In this document: positions 9,123 to 28,746 of the stretch, in pieces
Layout of the letters: every line of letters starts with the position of its first letter
How positions within the stretch are numbered: the first letter of the stretch is position 1
Assembly (NCBI RefSeq): GCF_039545455.1
Contig: NZ_CP154468.1
Coordinates: 62,001 to 126,000, forward strand
DNA length: 64,000 nucleotides
Source of the DNA: Brucella sp. BE17
GTDB taxonomy: Bacteria; Pseudomonadota; Alphaproteobacteria; Rhizobiales; Rhizobiaceae
Direction: 5' to 3'
Program-made: the position numbers and the translations under genes
Notes under the pieces: model-generated
Databases searched by the model: none
What the model was told of the DNA's origin: nothing
Seen by the model: only the letters and a program-made list of their open reading frames with translations

Positions 9123-9952
9123 GTGACAGCCTCCTCTAGCGTCTGGCGACCCAACTTGCGCACGAGGTCACGGCGATAGCGGGCTGTTGCGTGAAGGTCG
9201 TCACGGGCATTGAGATCCCAGGCAAACTGGTTGAGCGCGGCGTCGAAATCGGCAGAATCCGGAAGCGGCAAGGCGCGTCGGGTCGGCGTATCGGCTACCC
9301 CGCCAACGGTGAGCCACGCGGTTTCGCCATCAACCACGGCTGCACAAGCCGCAATGGCGAAATCACCATGCCGGCGCCCGACTTCGCCAAATGCATAGCC
9401 ATGACCATCCCTGCGCGTGGGATAAGTTACGGCAACGATCAGTTCATTATCCGCCTTGGCGGTGGTCATCATGCCGGTTACGAATTTTTCGGCGGGCAGT
9501 ACCCGCTCCTTCTTCGATTTGTATGAGGTGAGATGGACGGTGCCCTCAAGCGCTATGAGCGTGGTCAGAAGCTCGGCGGATGGGTCAGCATGGGCAACAG
9601 AACCGCAGACGGTTCCCCGCGCACGGGTCTGCGCGTGGCCAACCCATTTAAGCGCCGCAGAAAGCAGCGGTTGCCGGTCGTCCAGCGCCGGATAGCGTTC
9701 CAGTTCCGCCTGACGGACGCCAGCACCAACGCGCAGGCCGCTGCCCGTGTCCTCGATCCTGCGCAGCGGCTCTATAGCCATGATGTCGACAAGCAATACA
9801 GGGCGGGCAAGACGCATATTCAGCATAGGAACGAGAGACTGTCCACCTGCGATAACGCGCGCATTTGACTGCTCTTTTTGCAAGGCGTCCAACGCTTCGG
9901 AAAGAGCGTCTGGACGCAGATAATCGAACTGTGCCGGTTTCATCGCATCCAC
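9110..9952 (-). CDS. Molybdenum hydroxylase FAD-binding medium subunit
   Basis: A 280-residue CoxM-like subunit with the FAD-binding motifs VIAGGQSLVPMLNMRLA (about 34-50) and GTVCGSVAHADPSAELL (about 114-130), followed by the CO_deh_flav_C domain. It accepts electrons from the small Fe-S subunit and passes them to an external acceptor. The start overlaps the end of the large-subunit gene by 13 bp. The gene order large-medium-small differs from the medium-small-large order of cox operons, but it is common among aldehyde and heterocycle hydroxylases. Confidence 0.92.
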   Translation of the reverse strand: MDAMKPAQFDYLRPDALSEALDALQKEQSNARVIAGGQSLVPMLNMRLARPVLLVDIMAIEPLRRIEDTGSGLRVGAGVRQAELERYPALDDRQPLLSAALKWVGHAQTRARGTVCGSVAHADPSAELLTTLIALEGTVHLTSYKSKKERVLPAEKFVTGMMTTAKADNELIVAVTYPTRRDGHGYAFGEVGRRHGDFAIAACAAVVDGETAWLTVGGVADTPTRRALPLPDSADFDAALNQFAWDLNARDDLHATARYRRDLVRKLGRQTLEEAVTCRD

Positions 9953-12900
9953 CCCAGAGCAAGAGCGACACGCTTCAAAGAAGCGATCGGATTGAAGCCG
10001 CGCTTTTTGCCTCCGGCCTTAGCGGCCAGCGCCTCGAAAAACTGCCCTATGACCACGCGTGCTGCGCCATCGAGCAACCGTCCGCCGATGGAGGCGACCT
10101 TGCCGCCCACGGCTGCGGTATACTGATAAGAAATCTTCGTTACGCCGGGCGAAATTTCCGTGAGCGTCACGGTTCCCGTACCCTCGCCGTTTCCAAGCGC
10201 ACCACTTGTGCCGCCGCTAAGAGTGACCGATTCCGGTTCGTTGAGGTCGGATAGGCTAATAGACGCCGAATAGCGTCCCTTGACGGGACCGATACCAAGC
10301 GTGACATCAGCCTTGAATTGGGTATCCGATACTTTCTCAACGCCATGCGCGCCCGGAATGATCGACATCAGTTCGTCCGGGTTAAGAAGCATGTCCCAAA
10401 TGCGCTGGCGTGACGACTGAACGATGGCTTCGCCTTCACCGGAAAGTCCCCGCTCTCCGGCTTTTGCATGCGTTGATTTAGGCTTGGCCTTCGGTGGCTT
10501 GGCTGGTGCGGGTTCAGCACCGTGAACGTGCTCGGCGAGCTTTGCCGGCGTGAGTGGAAGTTGGATGTCATGGATTCCCAGTGCATCTGCAACCGCATTT
10601 GCGATACAGACGGGTGTCGACATACAGTTTCCCTCGCCGACCCCCTTAGCGCCCAGCGGCGTGAATGGCGAAGGGCTTTCATAATGCAGGATCGTAAGCG
10701 GTGGCGTCTCCATGATCGTCGGAATGAGATAATCGGCCAGAGTACCCGATTGCAGGCCGCCGTCTTCGCCATAACTGGTTTCTTCATAAAGAGCCGCACC
10801 CAACGCATGCGCGAACCCGCCGGTCACTTGCCCCTCGACCATGCCCGGATGCAGGATGCGTCCGCAATCGTGCATCGTGACATATTTATAAATCTTCACT
10901 TCTGCGGTGACGCGGTCAATTTCGACGGCACAAATGTCGAAGATGAAGCCATGGCAGAGCGACGAGTTTACACGGTCCTGCTCGTCCGGTGCGGTCAGTT
11001 CCGGCGGCGTCCAGAAAGCGGTTTCACGGATCGTCTGGTCAATGCCTTGCGGCAGCTCGCCCGGCGACCAGTGGCTTGACGAGGCGACACGGGCAAAGGG
11101 GAAACTCTTCTGGATGTCGCCAGCATGAACACGACCACCCTCGAAGACAATATCTTCAAAGTTCGCTTTCAACTGCCGTGCCGCGATGGCGGCAAGCTTG
11201 GCGCGGACCCGGCGCGCGGCAATATCGGCAGCACCGGCCACCGCGGCAGCAAAGCGGCTCGAATAATTTCCCGAAGCAATTGACCAGGCATCTTTTGCCG
11301 TATCGAGTTCTGTTACGACGCGGATATCGGCAGGTTTCAATCCAAAGACATCGGCCACCACCTGCGACAACACCGTGCGATGCCCCTGTCCTTGCGGGAC
11401 GGACGCAACATGAACCGACACCGAGCCGAGCGCGTCGATGCTGATGGTCGCAGTTGCCTGAGCACCGTTCTTTGGGCCAGCCTTGGCTCGCTGTTCGGGG
11501 CTCAGTACCGCAGTGATGTAGCCCATATTCGAGACGCTGGGTTCAACGACAGCCGCATAGCCTATGCCGAACACGCGCCCTTTGGCGCGAGCCAAGTCAC
11601 GAAGAGCAATAAGTTCATCGAGTTTGCCGTCGCGGACTGCAATGTCGATTGCGGCCTGATAATTACCGCTGTCATAGAGCGCACCCGCTGCATTGCGGTA
11701 GGGAAAGGCGTTGGCAGGAATGAGATTGACGCGAATAACATCAAGCGGATCGAGCGACAGCTCCACGGCTATGCGCTGCATGAGGCGTTCCAGCGCGAAA
11801 TAGACCTGTGGTCCGCCGAAACCGCGGTTGAGCCCGGTCGGCATTTTGTTGGTCAACGCGATACGGTTACGCATCGACAGGTTGGGGATCGCATAGGCAC
11901 CCGTCATATTGCCGTGCATACGATAAAGCGTTGCGGGCTCTGGCGCACGCAGATGCGCACCGCAATCCTCGATCTGGTCCCAGTGCAGCGCCGTGATCCT
12001 GCCGTCTGCTTCGACAGCGGCTTTGAGTTGGGTCACGCGATTGGTTGCCGTCACCGAAGCCATGAGATGTTCCATCCGGTCTTCGATCCACTTGACCGGA
12101 CAACCGGCGACACGCGCGGCAATACCCATCAGCACGACATAGGGAAATATGGCCTGCTTGACGCCGAAACTGCCGCCTGAATCAGGCGGCGTACGCAATC
12201 TAAGACGATTGCCCGGTACATTCAGCCCGCGCGCCATCACCGCATGAATACTGAACGGCCCCTGAAAATTCGCCAGAATGTCATAGCTGTCTTCGGTCGG
12301 ATCATATTCTGCAACCACGCCGTAGGTTTCAATCGGCGTGCAGGCATTGCGCGGATAGCGCACATCGATGGAAATCGTGTGTGGTGTAGTGGCGAATGCC
12401 GTATCGGGATCGCCATAACGAAACGACCGATCATTGGCGAGATTGCCATTCAGTCCCTCGTGAAGAACCGGAGCATTGCTGCCGAGGGCTTCGACTGGAT
12501 CGGTTACGACGGCAAGCGGCTCGTAGGCGACTTCGATCAGGTCGAGCGCGTCTTCTGCGATATAGCGGCTCGTAGCAACCACAATCGCCACCGGCTCGCC
12601 GAAATAACGCACCTTATCAACGGCAATCGGCCAGCATTCGATGGGTGCCTTGACACCTACGACGAGCGAACTCCCGTAACGTTTCACATCTTCGGCGGTC
12701 AGGATGGCCACAACGCCGGGCAGTACGGATGCCTTAGACGTGTCGATTTTTCCAATGCGTGCATGACCATGCGGCGAGCGAAGAATGGCCGCGTGGCATG
12801 TCCTGGTCCGGGTCGGAAGATCATCGATATAACGCCCGCGCCCGGTCAAAAGCGCGCCATCCTCGACACGGGGCATGGATTTTCCAGTCCATTTCCCAAT

Positions 12901-12963
12901 CTTGCCGGGTGAAGCCGGTTCCTCGCGTAATTTCTGTGTTGCAAGCGTCAATGTCATCACCAT
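9940..12963 (-). CDS. Molybdenum hydroxylase large subunit with fused C-terminal CoxG-like (SRPBCC) domain
   Basis: A 1007-residue protein. Residues about 20-815 form the xanthine-oxidase-family catalytic subunit: GVGEGNC carries the catalytic glutamate Glu777. The active-site loop reads NRGFGGPQ (379-386), not the cysteine-containing AYRCSFR loop of true CO dehydrogenase, so a CO-oxidising role is unlikely. A low-complexity Ala/Pro/Lys linker (about 816-836) joins a carbon-monoxide-dehydrogenase subunit G-like SRPBCC domain (about 842-990). CoxG is normally a separate membrane-recruitment or maturation protein, so the fusion is notable. The substrate is probably a heteroaromatic acid or aldehyde. 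Alternative start: ATG at 12957. Confidence 0.9.
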   Translation of the reverse strand: MVMTLTLATQKLREEPASPGKIGKWTGKSMPRVEDGALLTGRGRYIDDLPTRTRTCHAAILRSPHGHARIGKIDTSKASVLPGVVAILTAEDVKRYGSSLVVGVKAPIECWPIAVDKVRYFGEPVAIVVATSRYIAEDALDLIEVAYEPLAVVTDPVEALGSNAPVLHEGLNGNLANDRSFRYGDPDTAFATTPHTISIDVRYPRNACTPIETYGVVAEYDPTEDSYDILANFQGPFSIHAVMARGLNVPGNRLRLRTPPDSGGSFGVKQAIFPYVVLMGIAARVAGCPVKWIEDRMEHLMASVTATNRVTQLKAAVEADGRITALHWDQIEDCGAHLRAPEPATLYRMHGNMTGAYAIPNLSMRNRIALTNKMPTGLNRGFGGPQVYFALERLMQRIAVELSLDPLDVIRVNLIPANAFPYRNAAGALYDSGNYQAAIDIAVRDGKLDELIALRDLARAKGRVFGIGYAAVVEPSVSNMGYITAVLSPEQRAKAGPKNGAQATATISIDALGSVSVHVASVPQGQGHRTVLSQVVADVFGLKPADIRVVTELDTAKDAWSIASGNYSSRFAAAVAGAADIAARRVRAKLAAIAARQLKANFEDIVFEGGRVHAGDIQKSFPFARVASSSHWSPGELPQGIDQTIRETAFWTPPELTAPDEQDRVNSSLCHGFIFDICAVEIDRVTAEVKIYKYVTMHDCGRILHPGMVEGQVTGGFAHALGAALYEETSYGEDGGLQSGTLADYLIPTIMETPPLTILHYESPSPFTPLGAKGVGEGNCMSTPVCIANAVADALGIHDIQLPLTPAKLAEHVHGAEPAPAKPPKAKPKSTHAKAGERGLSGEGEAIVQSSRQRIWDMLLNPDELMSIIPGAHGVEKVSDTQFKADVTLGIGPVKGRYSASISLSDLNEPESVTLSGGTSGALGNGEGTGTVTLTEISPGVTKISYQYTAAVGGKVASIGGRLLDGAARVVIGQFFEALAAKAGGKKRGFNPIASLKRVALALGWMR

Positions 12964-17788: not shown

Positions 17789-18559
17789 TTAGTTGAAACT
17801 GGATGTCTTGAGAAATTCAGCAAGCCGTTCGGATTTCGGCCTGATGAACATCTCTTTAGGGTCGCCCTCTTCACAGATGATGCCCTGATTCATGAAAATC
17901 ACGCGGCTGGAAACCTCGTATGCGAAGCGCATTTCATGGGTGACGAGCAACATGCTCATGCCGTCTGCAGCCAGGCCCTTGATGACCTGCAGCACTTCAC
18001 CGACCAGCTCAGGGTCGAGTGCCGACGTTACTTCGTCGAACAGCATCAGTTGTGGCGACATGGCAATGGCGCGGGCAATCGCGACGCGCTGCTGCTGGCC
18101 GCCCGACAGCTGGCCGGGGAAATGGCCACCACGTGAACCGAGGCCCACGCGCTCAAGCCACTTTTCGCCGATGGTTCGGGCTTCATCGCGGCTCATTTTC
18201 TTGACCTTGATCAGGCCGAGCATGACGTTCTGTAGCGCTGTCATGTGGGGGAAGAGGTTGAATTGCTGGAAAGCCATGCCTGTCATGGCGCGCTGGCGGG
18301 CAATTTCTTTTTCGCTTTTCCGCTTGCGGGTGCTGCCGGAATATTCGTAACCGATCTCTTCCCCCGCCAGGCGGATGTGTCCGCCCTCGAACTCTTCCAG
18401 CATATTGATGCAACGAAGCATTGTTGTCTTGCCGGAGCCGGAAGAGCCGATGATCGAGATGACTTCGCCCTCATGCATTGTGGTGTCGACGCCTTTTAAG
18501 ACTTCAAGCGGGCCATATTGCTTTCGCAGTCCCTGGATTTCGAGAAGTATTTTGCTCAT
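17789..18559 (-). CDS. Polar amino-acid ABC transporter ATPase (GlnQ/HisP type)
   Basis: A 256-residue ATPase. It has Walker [11 protein letters not shown]-loop [13 protein letters not shown], signature [14 protein letters not shown] and Walker [15 protein letters not shown]. Walker B has Val (DEVTSALD) instead of the common Pro, a frequent variant in this family. The open frame runs 86 codons further upstream into the permease gene, but homology starts at [20 protein letters not shown] (ATG 18559), 11 bases after the permease stop. It works with the two permeases and binding protein just upstream. Confidence 0.92.
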
Positions 18560-18570
18560 GACATGCGGCC

Positions 18571-19236
18571 TCAGGACGGGACAGCGGTCTTGCGTTCGAC
18601 GTATTTGCCAAAGCGCTCGATGCTGTAGTTGATGACGAAATAGAGAAGCCCGGCGAAGAAATAGAACTGCAGGCTCATGAAATTGCGCGAGATGATCTCT
18701 TGCGTACGCAGCAGAAGCTCGGCAACGCCGATGACTGAAAGCAGCGTCGAGGCCTTGACCATCTCTGCTGCTGTGTTGACCCAAGCCGGCAGGAACTGCC
18801 GTAATGCCTGCGGCCACAGCACAGAGGTAAAGGTCTGGCTGAAGGTCAGGCCGATCGCCTTGGCGGCTTCAGTCTGACCCTTGGGAATAGCCTGCAGGCC
18901 ACCTCGGACAATTTCGCCGACATGGGAGGAACAGAAGATGGCGAGAGCAAACACGCCCGCCTGAAACGGTCCGAGCGCGATGCCGACAGCTGACAGTACA
19001 TAATAGCTGGCCAAAACCAGCACAAGAACCGGCGTACCGCGGATGAAGTCAGTATAGGCACGGACGAAAAAGCGCAGCACACGATTGCCGTAGACCAGCG
19101 AGAGGCCGACAAACACACCGAGCACGGAGCCTGCAAGGATTGCCAGAAGCGAGATCGATACCGTGACACCGAGGCCTTTGAGGATGACGTAACGCGCCAG
19201 CCAGACCTGATCAAAGAAAGCGGAAAAATCCATCAT
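18571..19236 (-). CDS. Polar amino-acid ABC transporter permease (HisM/GlnP type), second
   Basis: A 221-residue permease of the His/Glu/Gln/Arg opine family. It has the EAA-loop region [21 protein letters not shown] and the [18 protein letters not shown] segment that contacts the ATPase. It is four bases from the first permease and 11 bases before the ATPase gene, so all are on one transcript. ATG at 19233 is an equally good start. Confidence 0.92.
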
Positions 19237-19240
19237 GACA

Positions 19241-19903
19241 TCACCTCGGGACAGTCAGACGGCGCTCGACAAAACGCATCAGCGCGGCGAGCACAAAACA
19301 GGTGGTGACGTAAAGACCCGATACGACGATCCAAGTCTCGACGATACGGAACGTCTCGACATTGATCTTACGTGCTTCGAAGGTCAGTTCCGGCACGGCG
19401 ATAGCGGCAGCAAGCGATGTGTCCTTGAACAGCGAAATGATCGTCGACGACAGGGATGGCAACACATTGCGGAACATCAGCGGTGCGATGATCGACGTGC
19501 GGATCTGCATAGGTGTTAAACCGATGGCGAGACCGGCTTCCGTCAAACCACGCGGGATAGACAACAGGCCAGCGCGAAATACCTCGGCCAGATAGGCTCC
19601 AGAATAGATCGCCAGGACTGCAACGAAACTTTCGATCTTGCCAAGCCGCACGCCAAGCTGCGGCAAGGCGAAATAGGCAAACAGCACCAGCACGAGGATC
19701 GGTAGGTTGCGAATGATCGTGACGTAGGTCGCAGCCGGAGCTTTGATCCAGACATTCTTCGAAATCAGCGCGAAAGCGACAAGCAAACCGATCAGCGCGC
19801 CGATCAGAATGGCAACAAAAGCAAGGCCGAGACTGAGCAGAAGACCTGCAAGAAGCTGGTCGAAACTGCGCCAGACGGCGGCAAAATTGAGCGTGTAGCC
19901 CAT
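19241..19903 (-). CDS. Polar amino-acid ABC transporter permease, first
   Basis: A 220-residue permease paired with the gene at 18571-19236. The conserved coupling segment reads LLSIPRGLTEAGLAIGLTPM followed by a hydrophobic tail, and the N-terminal part YVTIIRNLPILVLVLFAYF is typical of the HisQ/HisM group. It is 78 bp downstream of the binding-protein gene, and the gap carries a stem-loop. Confidence 0.92.
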   Translation of the reverse strand: MGYTLNFAAVWRSFDQLLAGLLLSLGLAFVAILIGALIGLLVAFALISKNVWIKAPAATYVTIIRNLPILVLVLFAYFALPQLGVRLGKIESFVAVLAIYSGAYLAEVFRAGLLSIPRGLTEAGLAIGLTPMQIRTSIIAPLMFRNVLPSLSSTIISLFKDTSLAAAIAVPELTFEARKINVETFRIVETWIVVSGLYVTTCFVLAALMRFVERRLTVPR

Positions 19904-19935
19904 GGCGTCATCCTGCCATAGTAGTAGAGCGAGCA

Positions 19936-19960
19936 GGACGAAGAGCTCAGCTCTTCGTCC
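19936..19960 (-). other. Intercistronic stem-loop after the amino-acid binding-protein gene
   Basis: Arms GGACGAAGAG (19936-19945) and CTCTTCGTCC (19951-19960) pair perfectly around CTCAG. The hairpin lies in the 78-bp gap between binding-protein and permease genes. There is no T-run on the transcribed strand. This is the classical position of elements that keep binding-protein mRNA in excess of membrane-component mRNA. Confidence 0.65.
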
Positions 19961-19981
19961 ATATGAGACAAGCCGGTGGGC

Positions 19982-20824
19982 TTACTTGTATTCGACAGGG
20001 AAGCCGATTTCTGGCGGCGTCAGTTCCTTGCCGAACCATGTCTTGTAGGAGTCGGCATAGAAATCGAACTCGACGCCGGTCATCGCTTCATGCAGAGCCG
20101 TGTTGACGAAGTTCAGCCAATCCTGGTCGCCACGCTTAACGCCGCAAGCGTAAGTTTGCGGGTTCCAACCATAGCCGGCATCCTTGTAACGCCCCTCGTT
20201 CTGGGTCATGTACCAGCTAAGCGACGACTGGTCGGTGGCGGCAGCGTCGGAGCGACCGGATTCCAGCGCCTGATAGATCAGGTCAACGGATTCGTACTGG
20301 TCAACCTTTGCATCCGGCAAGGCTGCATGAACCATGGCTTCAGCGTAGACGTTTTGCAAAACAGAGATGGTGACGGAAGACCCAGCTGCCTTCAACGCTT
20401 CATAATCAGCGTATTTGCCGTTTGCCTTGAGCATCAGGCCAACGCCTTCACGGTAGTAAGGAATGGTGAAGGCGATTTGCTGCGCGCGTTCGCCGGTCAC
20501 GGTCATGAACTGGCAGGTCAGGTCAACCTTGTTGGTGGTGATGTTTGGAATACGGGCGTCGGAAGACTGATTGACATATTCAATCTTGTTTGGATCGCCA
20601 AACAGGGCCTTGGCGACGATGCGGCCCATATCAACGTCAAAGCCCTGCAGCTTGTCATCAGCGCTCTTGAAGTGCCAAGGCGCGTTCGTGCTCCCGGTGC
20701 CCAGAACGAGGTGGCCGCGAGCAAGCACTTCATCGAGTTTGCTGCCGTCGGCGAGAACCGGTGTGGTGGAAAGGAATGTGGCGGCAACCAGAGACATGAT
20801 GCCGGTGCGGAAAGAAATGGTCAT
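19982..20824 (-). CDS. Polar amino-acid ABC transporter substrate-binding protein
   Basis: A 280-residue family-3 binding protein. The signal peptide is MTISFRTGIMSLVAATFLST through TPVLA-DG. The mature domain starts LDEVLARGHLVLGTGSTNAP and has GFDVDMGRIVAKALFG and the DLTCQFMTVTGERAQQIAFT segment that closes over the ligand's amino-acid groups. It is the first gene of a six-gene operon (binding protein, two permeases, ATPase, RidA, IclR). The ligand is unknown; the RidA neighbour hints at an amino acid that gives reactive imines. Confidence 0.92.
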   Translation of the reverse strand: MTISFRTGIMSLVAATFLSTTPVLADGSKLDEVLARGHLVLGTGSTNAPWHFKSADDKLQGFDVDMGRIVAKALFGDPNKIEYVNQSSDARIPNITTNKVDLTCQFMTVTGERAQQIAFTIPYYREGVGLMLKANGKYADYEALKAAGSSVTISVLQNVYAEAMVHAALPDAKVDQYESVDLIYQALESGRSDAAATDQSSLSWYMTQNEGRYKDAGYGWNPQTYACGVKRGDQDWLNFVNTALHEAMTGVEFDFYADSYKTWFGKELTPPEIGFPVEYK

Positions 20825-21715: not shown

Positions 21716-22759
21716 TTGAAAAACGCTAAGCGACGTACGACTGCTCAGGACGTAGCGCAGTTCGCCGGAACCTCTCAATCTGCGGTCAGCAGAGTTTTCA
21801 CCCCCGGTGCCAGCGTTTCAACGGAGTTGCGAAAGCGTATCCTTAAAGCCGCCAATGAGTTGGGCTATCGGCCAAACGCCTTTGCACGTTCGCTTATCAC
21901 CCGCCGCTCCGGCATGGTTGCCGTCACAATGGCGATGATGCACAATCCCTATAATGCGAAACTGATCGAAGTTTTAACCAGTCGGTTACAGGATCAGGGC
22001 TATCAGGTTCTGCTATTTTCAGCGCCTCATGGTTCAAGTGCGAGTCTGCTGCTCGAACAGATCATGCAATATCAGGTTGAGGCCGTTATTCTGGGTTCGA
22101 CAGGCTTGTCACCTTTGCAAACCAGCGAGTGCCAGCTGGCTGGCGTGCCGATTATCATGTTTAATCCATCGCTGGAAGATACAGGCATTTCGATGGTTCT
22201 CGGTGAAAACGAGAGAGCCGGTGAAATGATTGGCGATTTTCTAGTCAAGGGTGGTCACAAAAGGATGGCTTTTGTCAGCGGACATGAAGGTACCGTGGGA
22301 AGCCATCATCGTGAGGTGGGCTTTACCCGTGCGGTTGTGAATGCTGGTCTGCCTGAACCGATCCGTGTCAATGGTGATTATGATATTCATACAACCGCAA
22401 AAGTGATGCGTGACCTTCTTAATCGCCGGGACCGGCCTGACGCTGTTTTCTGCGCGAATGATTCCACCGCAATTACTTGTCTCGACGTTGCACGATATGA
22501 GTTTGGCTTAAAAGTGCCGGATGATATTTCGATCGTTGGTTTCGATGATATGCCGCAATCGCGCCTGCCCGGTTTTGATCTCACAACCTATGCGCAGCCG
22601 GTAACCCCATTTGTTGATCTGACAATCGGGATCGTCAATGATTTTGTACGCGACCCGTCACAGGCGCCGCGACGCATCACGGTGGCTGGTGAGTTTCTGA
22701 TCAGAGGAACCGCCCGCATACCCGATGGCATGACACGCCGCCCCAAGGAAAATCTATAA
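21716..22759 (+). CDS. LacI-family transcriptional regulator
   Basis: A 347-residue LacI/GalR protein. The N-terminal HTH reads TAQDVAQFAGTSQSAVSRVF, and the hinge helix follows as LGYRPNAFARSLITRRSG. The ligand domain has the GFDDMPQSRLPGF motif. No ATG is available near the start; the TTG at 21716 with AGGA about 9 bases upstream is the likely start. It is convergent with the dimethylformamidase-like gene, from which it is separated by a bidirectional terminator, and probably regulates that operon, which holds a sugar-type ABC importer. Confidence 0.88.
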   Translation: MKNAKRRTTAQDVAQFAGTSQSAVSRVFTPGASVSTELRKRILKAANELGYRPNAFARSLITRRSGMVAVTMAMMHNPYNAKLIEVLTSRLQDQGYQVLLFSAPHGSSASLLLEQIMQYQVEAVILGSTGLSPLQTSECQLAGVPIIMFNPSLEDTGISMVLGENERAGEMIGDFLVKGGHKRMAFVSGHEGTVGSHHREVGFTRAVVNAGLPEPIRVNGDYDIHTTAKVMRDLLNRRDRPDAVFCANDSTAITCLDVARYEFGLKVPDDISIVGFDDMPQSRLPGFDLTTYAQPVTPFVDLTIGIVNDFVRDPSQAPRRITVAGEFLIRGTARIPDGMTRRPKENL

Positions 22760-22842: not shown

Positions 22843-25056
22843 CTATTCAGATGTTACAAAGTGGCGGACCACATTTGCCGTGAGCGTTGAGACCGGGTTG
22901 TCATATCCATTCATGGGGAGACAACCGATCCAGCAGATCGAGCCAACAGAAAACACCGCACCACCGCCCGATATATCAAGCCAGGTCAGATCAGCCCGCA
23001 CCAAGGGGTTTTTTGAGCCACCCTGCTGCGGGAGCATATTGGTATAGTCTTCAATCACTGGCTGGAAATACTCGCTGTGATTAATGGATGAGGCCAGTAC
23101 TTCGGTTGCCGCTGGCGTGCCATGCAAATAATCCGTGTGATCAATTTCATCACCGGCGGCACCACCCAGCATCATGCCATCTTCACCCAGAAGGTCGCTT
23201 TCAACATTGTTGAATATCCAAGCTCTTGGTCCGCTGCGCGCGGTCTCGCTGATCTTATAGGGAGAGGCACGGCCCCAGCCCACAGCACCCATGCCAATGC
23301 CGGTCAAGCGATGCGGGCTGCGGCCTTTATTGCGCCACAAGCCACCTTCTTCACCGCTAAATGCGTGTACTACTTCGCCGGGGGGGGACGTCCAGTTTCT
23401 TGCACCCGTATAGCCACGGCGCACCTCGATCATATCCGGCCGGTCTGGATGATAGGTCGTGGTCCAGTAAAAGCCATTTCCGCCCAAATACATAAGATTG
23501 CCGCCATCGCCAACATAGTCCTGAATCGCATCCAGCATGCGTTCAGAAACATATTCGGGATGCGAACCTGTGATCACTACCTTATAGCCATCAAGCGCGC
23601 TGCGGCCTTCAAGATGAAGGTCTTCATCCGTTAGCACGTCAAACTCGAAACCCTGTTCGGTGAGCCAGTCCAGCAGATAAAAATCGGCAGGAAAATGCCG
23701 GTAAGAATTGTTGAGCCAATTGCGGTGGAATGGTCGAAAATTCAGCATTGGACGCAAGCGTGAGACATACGCAACACCTGCACCGTCAAGATGGTTGTCA
23801 TATATGGACAAGCCAAGTTCGGGGTGGCAGGCTACATAGAGATCGGCAGCTTGCGGCTCGACGGGTTCATTCTTCATCAAAGAGAGTTCGGCAACGCCGA
23901 TTTCACTTAAAGAATTGGTTTCATTGCCATAGGCCAGATATGTATTGGTGGGCGCGAGGAAAACCGCGCGGGCTTTCCGGCTATTGATGGATGGACGCAC
24001 ATAGAATGGAATCCAGTCTTCAGCGCCGCCGTCAAATATTTTCAGGGCATAGACGCCGCTTTTCCAGCTATCGCCAATTGGAAGGCTAAGGCTTTTTTCC
24101 CAATCACCGCCGGCGACCATGTCGGCATGAAACAAAATCGCATCATATTCATGCGGGGCAATTTTATAGTGATTGTGGCGGCCGCTCCATTCCGGGCCAG
24201 TGACGGCACGCATCGGTGCATTGACCAGCGTTGCCGTTGGACCGCCCTCAATCTGGTTTGAAATATCAAACCGTCGGGGCTCCACACCAAAGGACCATGC
24301 TGCCCAAACAGCTGTGCCCAGAACATTGGAAAGGTCATTGCCGCGCAAAATCTGACTTACCTGCGAAGCATTGGCTGCGCCACTGGCAAGCGACAGAGAA
24401 GCAATCTTGCCGGTAAAATGGTTTGCGACAATCGTCTCACGCTGCTCTGCGGCCAGAATAACAATCTGACCTTTTTCGTGACCCAGCAGACTGTCGGCAT
24501 TCGTGTATTCCATCACATCCAGCGGCAGCGAATAGCTGGCACGCGAAACACTGCGCAACGCGATACGGATCACGGATCCTTCAAGAGTGATAACAACCCG
24601 GTACCAGGCAAGCGTGGATAATGTTTGAGACAACTCACCCACAACCCGGCCTGCAATGACAAGCTGAAGCTTTGCATTCTCAATACGCAACGCAAGAGCA
24701 CGGCCGATAGAAAGAAGGGTCTGTGTGCTCCTGCCTTCGAGAATTGTCGGCAGAAAAGCAAAGCTGATCGTCGTTTCCCGCTGGCAGAGCAGGCCGCGCT
24801 CATCCTGAAACGTCAGATAAGACCCGATTGACGATAGCTGAAGCTTACCCGGATAGGATTTTGCAAGCGGTGCTTCAACGCGGAACAGTTTTTTACCCGG
24901 CGCGCCTTCACGATCATCGATACTTTGAATACGCCAAACTTCCGCCTCGTATGAGCCATTGGGTGCACTGATATAAAAATTGAGTTCTTCGCCAGCACGG
25001 GCGCTGAGCCGGTCCGAATAACCCATAATCTGGTGCGGTTTAATTGCGGTGGGCAT
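22843..25056 (-). CDS. N,N-dimethylformamidase large (beta) subunit homologue
   Basis: A 737-residue protein similar along its length to the large subunit of N,N-dimethylformamidase (DmfA2, about 760 residues). An N-terminal concanavalin-like beta domain (about 60-230) precedes the catalytic half. Motifs matching the mononuclear-iron site are Tyr376 in NTYLAYGNET, Tyr419 in LSIYDNHLDGAG, and His499/Glu501 in GSHPEY. In Paracoccus DMFase the iron is held by two Tyr and one Glu with a nearby His. No gene for the small subunit is seen. It is the last gene of a sugar-type ABC operon, so a natural amide or glycosyl-amide substrate is possible. Start chosen at 25056 (MPTAIKPHQIMGYSDRLSAR). Confidence 0.85.
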   Translation of the reverse strand: MPTAIKPHQIMGYSDRLSARAGEELNFYISAPNGSYEAEVWRIQSIDDREGAPGKKLFRVEAPLAKSYPGKLQLSSIGSYLTFQDERGLLCQRETTISFAFLPTILEGRSTQTLLSIGRALALRIENAKLQLVIAGRVVGELSQTLSTLAWYRVVITLEGSVIRIALRSVSRASYSLPLDVMEYTNADSLLGHEKGQIVILAAEQRETIVANHFTGKIASLSLASGAANASQVSQILRGNDLSNVLGTAVWAAWSFGVEPRRFDISNQIEGGPTATLVNAPMRAVTGPEWSGRHNHYKIAPHEYDAILFHADMVAGGDWEKSLSLPIGDSWKSGVYALKIFDGGAEDWIPFYVRPSINSRKARAVFLAPTNTYLAYGNETNSLSEIGVAELSLMKNEPVEPQAADLYVACHPELGLSIYDNHLDGAGVAYVSRLRPMLNFRPFHRNWLNNSYRHFPADFYLLDWLTEQGFEFDVLTDEDLHLEGRSALDGYKVVITGSHPEYVSERMLDAIQDYVGDGGNLMYLGGNGFYWTTTYHPDRPDMIEVRRGYTGARNWTSPPGEVVHAFSGEEGGLWRNKGRSPHRLTGIGMGAVGWGRASPYKISETARSGPRAWIFNNVESDLLGEDGMMLGGAAGDEIDHTDYLHGTPAATEVLASSINHSEYFQPVIEDYTNMLPQQGGSKNPLVRADLTWLDISGGGAVFSVGSICWIGCLPMNGYDNPVSTLTANVVRHFVTSE

Positions 25057-25078
25057 GAGATGATTTCTTTTCTTTAGA

Positions 25079-25116
25079 CTGTCCTCAGAGTGTGCAGTTA
25101 AGAACTCTGAGGACAG
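25079..25116 (-). other. Stem-loop 1 between ABC permease and dimethylformamidase-like gene
   Basis: Perfect 13-bp arms CTGTCCTCAGAGT (25079-25091) and ACTCTGAGGACAG (25104-25116) with a 12-base loop. It lies in the 125-bp leader of the enzyme gene, within the same operon. No T-run follows on the transcribed strand except a weak CTTTTC tract, so partial termination or mRNA protection are both possible. Confidence 0.65.
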
Positions 25117-25130
25117 GCATGAAAACCAGA

Positions 25131-25170
25131 TAGAGCGGCGCGGTTTATGCGCCACATAAAGACCGCTCTA
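25131..25170 (-). other. Stem-loop 2 in the same intercistronic gap
   Basis: Outer arms TAGAGCGG (25131-25138) and CCGCTCTA (25163-25170) enclose an inner stem TTTATG/CATAAA (25144-25149 and 25155-25160). It starts right after the permease stop codon. Together with stem-loop 1 it makes a two-hairpin spacer ahead of the dimethylformamidase-like gene. Confidence 0.6.
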
Positions 25171-25181
25171 AGCGAATAAGA

Positions 25182-26183
25182 TTAAACTGCTCTGCGTCGC
25201 AGGTTTTTGTTCAGGAAACCTGACAGGGAGACTGCAATCAGCAACATTGCACCATTGAAAAGATCCTGCACCCAAGGGGCAAAACCGAGCTGCTGAAGGC
25301 CGCTCACACCTGCGCCGAGCAGAAAGACGCCAACAAGTGTGCCCCAGACGTTGAATTTTCCGGGTGTAATGGTGGTGAGGCCGAGAAAAGCACCTGCATA
25401 GGCTGGTAGCAGATAGCCCATGGCGATCATCGGCTGGCCTGAACCGAGCTGACTGCCACTCACAATGGCCGCAAAGGCTGCAATGCCACCCGCAAGGGCA
25501 AATGCGACCGCAACCGTCTTGGTGATGTTAATGCCAATGAGCTTCGATGCCGCACGATTGTCACCGACCGCACGCATATGCCTGCCCAGCGCAGTATGCT
25601 CAAACAAAAAATAAAGGAAAATTGCTGTCATGAAGACATACCAGACAGGGAAATCAATACCAAACAGCTTGCCCTGACCAAATGTATAAAATGAGTCTGG
25701 CAGAATACCCGTTATAATTGCTCCACCTGAATAGCCCATTCCGATACCACCGAGAATGGTTGCAAGCCCCATGGTTGCGACAAAGGAACTGACATAGAGG
25801 CCTCTGATCAAGAAAGCATTGAACAGGCCCACGAGACAGCCAGCGCTCACCAGAAGCACGGCGATAAGCGGCCATGGAAGAGTGCTTTGTGACACAAGTC
25901 CAATGATGAGAACCTGACAAAGCCCCATAAGCGCTGCAAAAGACAGGTCAAACTCACCGACGATCAGCACGCCGAGAATAGATAAAGATAAAAGCGCAAT
26001 GATGGATTGCGATGTGGCAATCGATAACAGATTACGCGTAGTCAGATAGGTGTCTGGCTTGAGAAAAGCGAATGTCAGAACGAGTGCAATCACGATCAGC
26101 ACCAGGCCGTATTTTCCAGTGAGCGCCTCAAAGAGACCGCCTGAGACAAACGACTTCTTTTCAGGAATTGCGGTAGCTTTCAT
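25182..26183 (-). CDS. Sugar-type ABC transporter permease (RbsC family)
   Basis: A 333-residue permease with about nine hydrophobic segments. Family features are LGVLIVGEFDLSFAALMGL near residue 88 and RAVGDNRAASKLIGINITKT, the cytoplasmic coupling loop. It is fused end to start (TAATG-type overlap) with the ATPase gene upstream. It pairs with the ATPase and binding protein of the same operon. The substrate is unknown, but the operon also encodes a dimethylformamidase-like enzyme. Confidence 0.9.
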   Translation of the reverse strand: MKATAIPEKKSFVSGGLFEALTGKYGLVLIVIALVLTFAFLKPDTYLTTRNLLSIATSQSIIALLSLSILGVLIVGEFDLSFAALMGLCQVLIIGLVSQSTLPWPLIAVLLVSAGCLVGLFNAFLIRGLYVSSFVATMGLATILGGIGMGYSGGAIITGILPDSFYTFGQGKLFGIDFPVWYVFMTAIFLYFLFEHTALGRHMRAVGDNRAASKLIGINITKTVAVAFALAGGIAAFAAIVSGSQLGSGQPMIAMGYLLPAYAGAFLGLTTITPGKFNVWGTLVGVFLLGAGVSGLQQLGFAPWVQDLFNGAMLLIAVSLSGFLNKNLRRRAV

Positions 26184-27670
26184 TATGTAACCTCATGCGT
26201 AAGCTGGGCGACAGCTTCAGGATCAAATGGCTGGTCAACGAGTTCTCGCCCGATCCTCCCATGTGCAAGAACGTAGATGCGATCGCTGACGGCTGCGACT
26301 TCGTCATGATCCGAAGATGTAAGAAGGAAGCTGACGCCGTCATCCGCTTTCCGGCGCATCAATGCGTAAAGCGCGTTTCGCGTTGGCATATCCACGCCAG
26401 CGGTCGGTTCATCCAGAATGACTAATTTGGGATTCGCGTCAAAGCCGCGCGCGACGATGACTTTCTGCGCGTTCCCGCCCGACAATTCCGATATTAACGC
26501 ATCGGCATTTGCAGGTTTCACGCCATATTCAGCAATGGCCCTGACCGTTGTTGCTCGTTCCTGACGCCGGGAGCGGACTAAACTTGGCAAAGACGATGTA
26601 GTTGGATTAAGAAACAGGTTCTCAATCAGGTTCATGGTTGCAGCCGTTGTCAGCGTTCTGTCACCACTGATAAAGACAATGCCCTCCTTCATGGCTGAAG
26701 CAGGCGTGGCTGGAACATATGGCCTTCCGGCCAGTTCAATCCTGCCTTCTGATTTTGCCAAACCAAAAAGCAGTTTTCCCAAATCTTCCTGACCTGCACC
26801 GCGCAGGCCGACACAGCCGACAATTTCACCTTTGCGAACAGTCAGATCAACCGATTGTAAGCCGTGTGCTGTGCTGACATTCTCAAGCGTGAGCATTGAA
26901 GCGACACTTGTTGGTACAGGCGCGCGACGCTCACGTCCATCGGTTACCTTATCCGACATCATCGAGACAAGATCGGCCTCGCTCAGGCCTGTGGTCGTGC
27001 CCGTATGATAAAGTAAACCATCGCGAACAACCGTCACATGATCGGCGATCGTCAGCACTTCGCGCAGCCTGTGACTGACATAAATCATGCCAATGCCCTG
27101 CTGGCTGAGATGCCGCAACACCTTGAACAGCAAGTCAACATCGCTGCCGGGCAAAGTGGCTGTCGGCTCATCCAAGACCAGCAACCGCGCATTACGCCCC
27201 AATGCGCGGGCAATGGCCACTAATGCTTTTTCTGCAAGCGAAAGCTCTGATACTTCTTTTTCGGGGTCGATAGCAACGCCAAGCATATTCAGGCACTTGC
27301 GTGCCGTTTGATTGACGCTGCGCCAGTTAACCAGCCCCGCCCGTTTCGGGTAACCTGCGCCGAGAACAATGTTCTCGGCAACAGTCATGGAAGGGATCAG
27401 ACCCAGATCCTGATGAATAAAGGCAATCGCAGGACGACCATCATCACTTTCAGCAAACTGGATAGAGCCGCCATCTTCCTTATAGATCTCAGCGAGGATC
27501 TTAATGAAGGTGGATTTTCCGGCACCATTCTCACCAATGAGCGCATGAATCTGACCCGGAAGCACTTCCATGCTAAAGGATTTCAAGGCTTTCGTTGCAC
27601 CGAAAGATTTACTGACATTCTTCGCTATCAGGAGCGGCTGTTCCGCGTAGTTTGCTACGCTCAGGGTCAT
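26183..27670 (-). CDS. Sugar-type ABC transporter ATPase (RbsA family, double domain)
   Basis: A 495-residue tandem ATPase. Domain 1 has Walker A GENGAGKST and a signature reading LSLAEKALVAIARA, a deviation from LSGGE. Domain 2 has the degenerate Walker A GLRGAGQEDLGK but an intact LSGGNAQKVIVARG and DEPTAGVDMPT. That only the second domain has a canonical signature is normal for this family. The ATG overlaps the binding-protein stop (ATGA) and the stop overlaps the permease start. Confidence 0.9.
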   Translation of the reverse strand: MTLSVANYAEQPLLIAKNVSKSFGATKALKSFSMEVLPGQIHALIGENGAGKSTFIKILAEIYKEDGGSIQFAESDDGRPAIAFIHQDLGLIPSMTVAENIVLGAGYPKRAGLVNWRSVNQTARKCLNMLGVAIDPEKEVSELSLAEKALVAIARALGRNARLLVLDEPTATLPGSDVDLLFKVLRHLSQQGIGMIYVSHRLREVLTIADHVTVVRDGLLYHTGTTTGLSEADLVSMMSDKVTDGRERRAPVPTSVASMLTLENVSTAHGLQSVDLTVRKGEIVGCVGLRGAGQEDLGKLLFGLAKSEGRIELAGRPYVPATPASAMKEGIVFISGDRTLTTAATMNLIENLFLNPTTSSLPSLVRSRRQERATTVRAIAEYGVKPANADALISELSGGNAQKVIVARGFDANPKLVILDEPTAGVDMPTRNALYALMRRKADDGVSFLLTSSDHDEVAAVSDRIYVLAHGRIGRELVDQPFDPEAVAQLTHEVT

Positions 27671-28746
27671 TTTTTACCCCACATCTTCTTATAATGATCT
27701 CGGAAATCAATATCGTAGGCCTGTTCTGCAAGACCCGTCTCAGGGCAGGTAGCCTTCACAACCATGAAGGCCGGAATATTCTGCTTCTGCGGCTCGCTTT
27801 TATTGAAGACCCGGTTCATCTGATCGACGCCCGCCCAACCAGACCAGCTAAGTAAAGTCACAGCAACTGCACCAACCTGTCCCTGACGGCATAATTGCAT
27901 TTGTTGCGCATTGCCATCATAGCCAACGACCTTAACATCGGAACGACCCGCAGCACGCAATGCAGGCACGATCAGGCCATCCAGTGTGCCATATGGCGAT
28001 ACAATATAGTTAAGGTCATCACCAAAGCGGGCAACAAGACTCTGCACGAGCTGCTGGATATAAGATGGATTTGCTCCCTGCGAGACTGTCAGGTTAACGG
28101 AATCAAGAATTTTACAATCGGCGCAGTTTTCAAAAGCCTTCGCAACATTGCTTTGACGTTCAATCACGGCCTGAAATTCATCGGCGCGCAGCAACACGGC
28201 CTTTGCAGTCCCGCCACTATCTGCGATCATCCATTTACCCATCTGTTCGCCTTGAGCGGCAAACTCACGGTCAACATGGGCTGCAAAGAGATCGCTGTCA
28301 GACGCGATTTCAGCACCGTTGACGACAGGAATATCGCGTTCCTGTGCATACCGTAGGCCATCGCGGATCAGCGAAGGCGCAATTGCAATTGTGATGATAC
28401 CATCGACGCCGGCATTCACGGCTGTGCGGATGGCCGCATTATAGATCGCAGGGTCACCCTTGCCATCCACCACGGTAGCAGTCCAGCCAGCGGCCGTTGC
28501 AGCTTCTTTTGCGCCTGCCGCGTCGATTGCGCAATTTGATGCCTGATGGCAAGAAATAATTGTAATGGACTTGCCTTCGGCCATTGGTGGCGATTGCGTC
28601 GGTCCCGGCCATTCCCCCCGATTGCGGGAGGAGTTTTCAACATATTGCTTTGCTTCAGAGATCACATCTTCGCTGGTTGCAGCAATGACCGAGGCTGAAC
28701 TGGCCAATAAAACAGCCAACGAAAAAGCAGCGGCAATTTTGTACAT
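27667..28746 (-). CDS. Sugar-type ABC transporter periplasmic binding protein (Peripla_BP_4)
   Basis: A 359-residue secreted protein starting MYKIAAAFSLAVLLASSASV with a signal peptide ending at VIA-AT. It belongs to the RbsB-like family: ITIISCHQASNCAIDAAGAK and GVDGIITIAIAPSLIRDGL match the type-I fold, with GRSDVKVVGYDGNAQQM in the second lobe. A 30-residue N-terminal extension precedes the usual start of the fold. Two conserved-looking Cys (NCADC) may form a disulphide. ATG 28746 has GGGAG upstream; ATG 28770 is less likely. First gene of the operon. Confidence 0.9.
   Translation of the reverse strand: MYKIAAAFSLAVLLASSASVIAATSEDVISEAKQYVENSSRNRGEWPGPTQSPPMAEGKSITIISCHQASNCAIDAAGAKEAATAAGWTATVVDGKGDPAIYNAAIRTAVNAGVDGIITIAIAPSLIRDGLRYAQERDIPVVNGAEIASDSDLFAAHVDREFAAQGEQMGKWMIADSGGTAKAVLLRADEFQAVIERQSNVAKAFENCADCKILDSVNLTVSQGANPSYIQQLVQSLVARFGDDLNYIVSPYGTLDGLIVPALRAAGRSDVKVVGYDGNAQQMQLCRQGQVGAVAVTLLSWSGWAGVDQMNRVFNKSEPQKQNIPAFMVVKATCPETGLAEQAYDIDFRDHYKKMWGKK

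What the first reader, a model, noticed from the sequence alone, without database searches (positions are those of the whole stretch)
22843..28746. Dimethylformamidase-like large subunit inside a sugar-type ABC importer operon, with no small subunit
A protein homologous along its length to the DMFase large subunit (putative iron residues Tyr376, Tyr419, His499, Glu501) ends an operon with a ribose-type binding protein, double ATPase and permease, facing a LacI regulator. The characterised enzyme is an alpha/beta complex whose small subunit (about 130 residues) is encoded next to the large one; here no such gene is seen. Importing through a Peripla_BP_4 protein argues for a sugar- or nucleoside-like amide as the natural substrate. 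This may be a previously undescribed amidohydrolase-uptake system.
Basis: partly seen in the sequence, partly recalled or inferred. Interest (0 to 1): 0.78.

Follow-up and report, generated by a model that had tools for sequence, protein, structure and literature searches.

The report
Stand-alone DMFase-like enzyme with sugar importer
A bacterium carries an iron-type amide-splitting enzyme related to the solvent-degrading dimethylformamidase, without its usual small partner subunit, at the end of a sugar-type uptake operon; comparison with relatives suggests that working without the partner is common in the family and that pairing with sugar-type importers recurs in distant bacteria, although the substrate is unknown.

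Summary
Window 22843-25056 (-) encodes a 737-aa DMFA2_C protein whose model aligns with the Paracoccus DMFase large subunit over 706 residues at 30% identity. The positions of iron ligands Y376, Y419, E501 and catalytic H499, N527, E637 are kept. It ends a ribose-type (CUT2) ABC operon. A small-subunit profile found nothing in the own genome; 5 of 5 control genomes rang.

The missing subunit is not peculiar. Of 138 labelled rows 58 have an adjacent or in-frame small subunit and 80 do not; all 58 lie in one 76-row branch, the window outside it (second tree). The solved N-acetyl-(R)-beta-phenylalanine acylase shows no DmfA1-like chain.

Pairing with CUT2 importers recurs in Mesorhizobium (56% identity), Solirubrobacterales (same gene order), Nocardiopsis, Leucobacter/Microbacterium and Thermomicrobiales, some with FGGY sugar kinases, but in only 7 of 80 loci.

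Best reading: uptake of a sugar- or polyol-like amide, then cytosolic Fe(III) hydrolysis without small subunit. The substrate is unidentified; a Bradyrhizobium orthologue lies beside SBP_bac_8 genes instead, which counts against one fixed substrate.

The parts
22843..25056 (-). DMFase large-subunit-like amidohydrolase (DMFA2_C), 737 aa, ATG start at 25056
25182..26183 (-). CUT2-type ABC permease (BPD_transp_2)
   Evidence: Pfam E 3.5e-30; below the cut-offs of the 12 NCBIfam families matched
26183..27670 (-). CUT2-type double ATPase (RbsA-like)
   Evidence: two ABC_tran stretches; best NCBIfam RbsA 371 bits, cut-off 745
27667..28746 (-). periplasmic substrate-binding protein (Peripla_BP_4)
   Evidence: Pfam E 3.6e-25; nearest solved relatives are ribose-binding proteins, E 6e-9
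21716..22759 (+). LacI-family regulator, convergent with the operon
   Evidence: Pfam LacI and Peripla_BP_3
25057..25181 (-). intergenic stretch with two stem-loops (perfect inverted repeat at 25080-25115) between permease and hydrolase genes
   Evidence: fold z -4.51, 0 of 200 shuffles as low; single copy in the window

Best explanation
The operon takes up a polar, probably sugar- or polyol-like compound that carries an amide (N-acyl or carboxamide) and hydrolyses it in the cytosol. The binding protein delivers it to a CUT2-type ABC importer. The last gene makes a small-subunit-independent Fe(III) amidohydrolase, probably a dimer of large subunits, in which Y376, Y419 and E501 hold the iron, a metal-bound water activated near E637 attacks the amide carbonyl, and N527 steadies the oxyanion (mechanism carried over from the DMFase paper). 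Shown here: gene content and order, the kept residues, the overall fold as a model, no detectable small-subunit gene, the position in the family tree outside the small-subunit branch, and recurrence of the pairing. Inferred: iron binding, quaternary state, cytosolic location (no signal peptide seen by eye), substrate class, and regulation by the LacI protein.
For: Catalytic residues: Y376, Y419, E501, E637 in 149 of 149 and H499, N527 in 148 of 149 rows counted (5 of 154 rows not counted). Fold match to DMFase and acylase. No small subunit found in own genome; all 58 small-subunit rows in one 76-row branch without the window (SH-aLRT 99; again in a 115-row tree with a mixture model). Linkage in close relatives: hydrolase P0003 and binding protein P0122 both on a 66,511-bp contig, P0002 and P0123 both on an 8,014-bp contig (inferred from equal contig lengths). 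Mesorhizobium orthologue (56%) in one strand run with LacI, RbsA-type, RbsC-type and Peripla_BP_4 genes. In 80 genome-contig loci 7 have a CUT2 permease within 10 kb, 7 of 7 within 5 kb and 7 of 7 on the same strand. FGGY kinases in L042 and L078.
Against: Of the four window-clade loci whose surroundings I could read, two (the window, L152) have a CUT2 operon; the two Bradyrhizobium ones (L146, L033) have no CUT2 permease in the DNA held, and L146 has SBP_bac_8 and isochorismatase genes instead; L033 is cut 286 bases behind the hydrolase match. Only 2 of the 16 closest binding-protein homologues share a contig length with a listed hydrolase homologue (120 of 1022 hydrolases listed, longest contig only), so the binding protein may also occur apart from it. 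The binding protein lacks the Asp-Arg pair of ribose-binding protein at the aligned positions (residue names recalled). Paracoccus DMFase large subunit alone was inactive (PMC7686228). CUT2 pairing is a minority: 7 of 80 loci. The operon has no sugar kinase, and eight stretches of the model, some in the active-site region, have pLDDT under 50.
Confidence: 0.5

Rival explanations
1. The enzyme hydrolyses a nitrogen compound that is not sugar-like (acyl amino acid, polyamine or xenobiotic amide), and the CUT2 importer was recruited for that ligand.
For: Known family activities are on formamides, acetamiprid and, by the PDB name, N-acetyl-beta-phenylalanine. The Bradyrhizobium orthologue in L146 sits near SBP_bac_8 and isochorismatase genes; a gene that looks like glutamine synthetase precedes the L095 homologue. 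Ribose contacts (recalled) are not kept in the binding protein.
Against: FGGY kinases, TIM-barrel isomerase-like and Gfo/Idh genes beside homologues in CUT2 operons.
Confidence: 0.33
2. Importer and hydrolase are neighbours by chance and do not share a substrate.
For: 125-bp gap with strong hairpins between permease and hydrolase; the genome holds 23 BPD_transp_2 matches; binding-protein homologues may occur without a hydrolase.
Confidence: 0.12
3. The protein is an inactive or non-hydrolytic relative because it lacks the small subunit.
For: DMFase large subunit alone was inactive.
Against: All six catalytic residues kept; the acylase of the family is solved with no small-subunit chain matched; small-subunit-free rows are the majority of the sample.
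Confidence: 0.05

Closest known systems
N,N-dimethylformamidase large subunit (DmfA2; PDB 6lvb)
   Same: full-length homology, three-domain fold, Y/Y/E iron ligands, H, N and E catalytic residues
   Different: no small subunit found in the genome; the F693 gate position aligns with N673 (in a low-confidence loop); 35% identity to P. aminophilus DmfA2
N-acetyl-(R)-beta-phenylalanine acylase (PDB 8huy, 8i59, 8i5a)
   Same: same fold and six catalytic residues; no DmfA1-like chain matched in the entries
   Different: 34% identity; lies inside the 76-row branch in a 13-row small-subunit-free set, away from the window clade; I found no paper on it in the library
AceAB acetamiprid amidase
   Same: DMFase-like two-subunit amidase on another substrate (one passage of a review, PMC11573777)
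   Different: two subunits; not compared by sequence here
CUT2 (ribose-type) ABC importers
   Same: Peripla_BP_4 binding protein, double ATPase, BPD_transp_2 permease
   Different: no equivalog cut-off reached among the families shown; ends in a DMFase-like hydrolase

Membership tests
DMFA2_C (DMFase large-subunit-like) family | match to Pfam PF20254 over the gathering score | tested here: met
   304 bits against 27
DMFA2_C (DMFase large-subunit-like) family | 2-Tyr-1-Glu iron ligands plus H, N, E catalytic residues in sequence | tested here: met
   Y376, Y419, E501, H499, N527, E637
DMFA2_C (DMFase large-subunit-like) family | iron actually bound | not testable with these tools
   needs protein and metal analysis
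N,N-dimethylformamidase (alpha2beta2) | small subunit encoded in the genome | tested here: not met
   0 hits in own genome, 5 of 5 controls ring; DmfA1 0 hits
N,N-dimethylformamidase (alpha2beta2) | hydrolysis of DMF | not testable with these tools
   no assay
N-acetyl-(R)-beta-phenylalanine acylase | single-chain member of the fold without small subunit | tested here: met
N-acetyl-(R)-beta-phenylalanine acylase | same clade | tested here: not met
   acylase inside the 76-row branch, window outside
CUT2 ABC importer | Peripla_BP_4, two-domain ATPase, BPD_transp_2 permease in one operon | tested here: met
ribose importer RbsABC | equivalog cut-offs and ribose contacts | tested here: not met
   RbsA 371 of 745, ribose permease 137 of 398, RbsB 42 of 337 bits; D89/R90 (recalled) not kept in the alignment

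The most novel reading that the evidence does not exclude
A broad, mostly uncharacterised class of stand-alone Fe(III)-tyrosinate amidohydrolases serves the catabolism of imported sugar- or polyol-like amides in several phyla; two-subunit DMFases are one branch of it that acquired the small subunit (or the rest lost it; the tree is unrooted).
Probability: 0.4. Interest if true: 0.68.

Novelty: new variant of a known kind. Interest (0 to 1): 0.46.

Why it matters
The DMFase paper calls the two-tyrosine-one-glutamate iron site unique and reports that the large subunit alone is inactive. If much of the family works without the small subunit and part of it sits in sugar-type uptake operons, the natural role of this chemistry may be carbohydrate-amide catabolism, with the degradation of DMF and acetamiprid as a side branch. 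Window-clade and actinobacterial homologues with importers and kinases alongside make that testable.

Tried and rejected
Ribose importer proper: rejected, no cut-off met. Small subunit overlooked because it diverges fast: rejected for the window by the profile with controls and by lack of room. A replacement partner: the two Bradyrhizobium orthologues have a 158-aa SnoaL_4 gene at the place of the small subunit, but neither the window nor Mesorhizobium L152 has one there. Shared LacI operator in the two promoter regions: no shared 10-12-mer; sigma-70-like sites were not above shuffles (6 found, mean 7.8). More orthologues: in the genus 3 of 35 genomes match at E<=1e-30, only the own one as a full orthologue, the others at 34% and as a 38% fragment; 1 of 397 in the order sample at E<=1e-150, the own one; in Bradyrhizobium 50 of 242 match at E<=1e-30, 2 of them close (89-92% to P0010); 1 of 146 and 0 of 148 in two further genera. 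Literature. Listings only; no paper on the acylase was seen (the strain name AJ110349 used was recalled), and none holds both 'dimethylformamidase' and 'ABC transporter'. Subscription papers are not held.

It also said that one control genome lay outside the profile; two do.

Full report
Observation. The operon runs on the minus strand: binding protein 28746-27667, double ATPase 27670-26183, permease 26183-25182, then after 125 bp the hydrolase gene 25056-22843. A LacI gene (21716-22759, +) meets its tail. Pfam gives Peripla_BP_4, ABC_tran twice, BPD_transp_2 and DMFA2_C. The hydrolase matches the Paracoccus DMFase large subunit over its length (E 8e-113) and, nearly as well, N-acetyl-(R)-beta-phenylalanine acylase (E 1e-107).

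Small subunit. DmfA1 of P. aminophilus (L002) matches only DMFase entries in the PDB, not the acylase entries. Iterated against the reading frames of 150 loci it gave 62 hits. In L006 and L100 the small domain lies in the same open frame as the large one. One hit, in L097, lies 1.4 kb away in a 977-aa frame that also matches an ABC permease; I did not count it as a small subunit. The alignment of 32 small subunits from those loci (A2) found nothing at E<=1 in the own genome or in two Bradyrhizobium genomes that hold orthologues, and rang in 5 of 5 controls, two of which (G105, G156) contributed nothing to the profile. Each large-subunit gene was labelled by a small subunit within 400 bp on the same strand, or none with at least 600 bp of upstream flank. 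Rows shorter than 640 residues and duplicate loci of the window and of two Bradyrhizobium genomes were dropped. This gave 58 with and 80 without; the 80 include the window and, from its PDB entries rather than from gene context, the acylase. In the genome-contig loci alone 61 of 79 labelled genes have none; this count includes one that stands for a close Bradyrhizobium relative, L033. On the tree the label needs 6 changes, against at least 36 in 200 shuffles; all 58 lie in one 76-row branch (SH-aLRT 99) that also holds 18 without, among them the acylase. A 115-row tree with a mixture model, 39 long or redundant rows dropped, agrees: a 53-row side holds all 41 remaining small-subunit rows, support 99, window outside. 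The sample is uneven (the best 80 genome-contig loci plus genomes of the window's family and of Bradyrhizobium), near-copies inflate the clustering, and very divergent small subunits could be missed.

Surroundings of relatives. There (L152, 56% to the window) the gene lies in a one-strand run with LacI, ATPase, permease, E1 alpha, E1 beta, a lipoyl/alpha-beta-hydrolase protein, hydrolase, Peripla_BP_4 protein and SDR, next to a TIM-barrel isomerase-like and a Gfo/Idh gene. L047 (Solirubrobacterales) has the window's order: binding protein, ATPase, permease, hydrolase. L042 (Nocardiopsis) has hydrolase, binding protein, ATPase, permease and then an FGGY kinase. L078 (Leucobacter) has FGGY kinase, TIM barrel, SDR, ATPase, permease, binding protein, hydrolase, and its sister L061 (Microbacterium) looks alike. 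L081 (Thermomicrobiales) has binding protein, permease, ATPase, hydrolase (Pfam was run on part of these genes, the others rest on similarity to the window's). With only the window and L152 permeases as queries, 7 of 80 loci have such a permease within 10 kb; 7 of 7 lie within 5 kb (55% of the scanned flank) and 7 of 7 on the same strand. L061 and L078 are sisters; L092, which does have a small subunit, and L095 have an opposite-strand ORF call in between. Among 70 nearest same-strand neighbours of small-subunit-free genes (70 of 194 neighbour genes listed for 59 loci), 5 match SSF symporters and 3 Peripla_BP_4 (25 of 75 families shown).

Against. The two Bradyrhizobium orthologues show no CUT2 permease in the DNA held. 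L146 has SBP_bac_8, isochorismatase and AtuA genes; L033 has aldehyde dehydrogenase and GMC oxidoreductase genes on one side and ends just behind the hydrolase on the other. Of the 16 closest binding-protein homologues 2 share a contig length with a listed hydrolase. With P0125 as query a binding-protein match at E<=1e-40 was found in 3 of 394 genomes of the family, the own one at 71% and two at 30-32%. The binding protein lacks the ribose contacts D89/R90 (recalled names) at the aligned positions.

Conclusion. This is a member, without detectable small subunit, of a known enzyme family, in an importer operon of a kind that recurs but is a minority arrangement. Import followed by cytosolic amide hydrolysis is the most likely reading; the sugar-like substrate is an inference.

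Noticed in passing
window 25080-25170: Two stem-loops between permease and hydrolase genes, one a perfect inverted repeat; fold z -4.51. The perfect one is followed by A-rich sequence on the transcribed strand, unlike an intrinsic terminator; the scan lists one weak terminator-like match at 25175-25163.
   Followed up: partly
L006:1474-4182 and L100:9620-12205: Small-subunit domain and large subunit in one open frame, so the DMFase-like complex may be fused in these species.
   Followed up: no
L152:4730-19901: Mesorhizobium gene run joins LacI, CUT2 importer, E1 alpha/beta and lipoyl components, DMFase-like hydrolase and SDR, with TIM-barrel and Gfo/Idh genes: a fuller pathway than the window's.
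   Followed up: partly
L095:8555-12154: A gene that looks like glutamine synthetase lies directly upstream of a DMFase-like gene, behind an ABC importer set (presumably the one Gln-synt_C member).
   Followed up: no
window 9943-12963: Molybdopterin dehydrogenase large subunit with a CoxG domain at its C-terminus in one protein.
   Followed up: no
window 17789-20824: ABC importer set with an SBP_bac_3 binding protein on the other side of the LacI gene.
   Followed up: no
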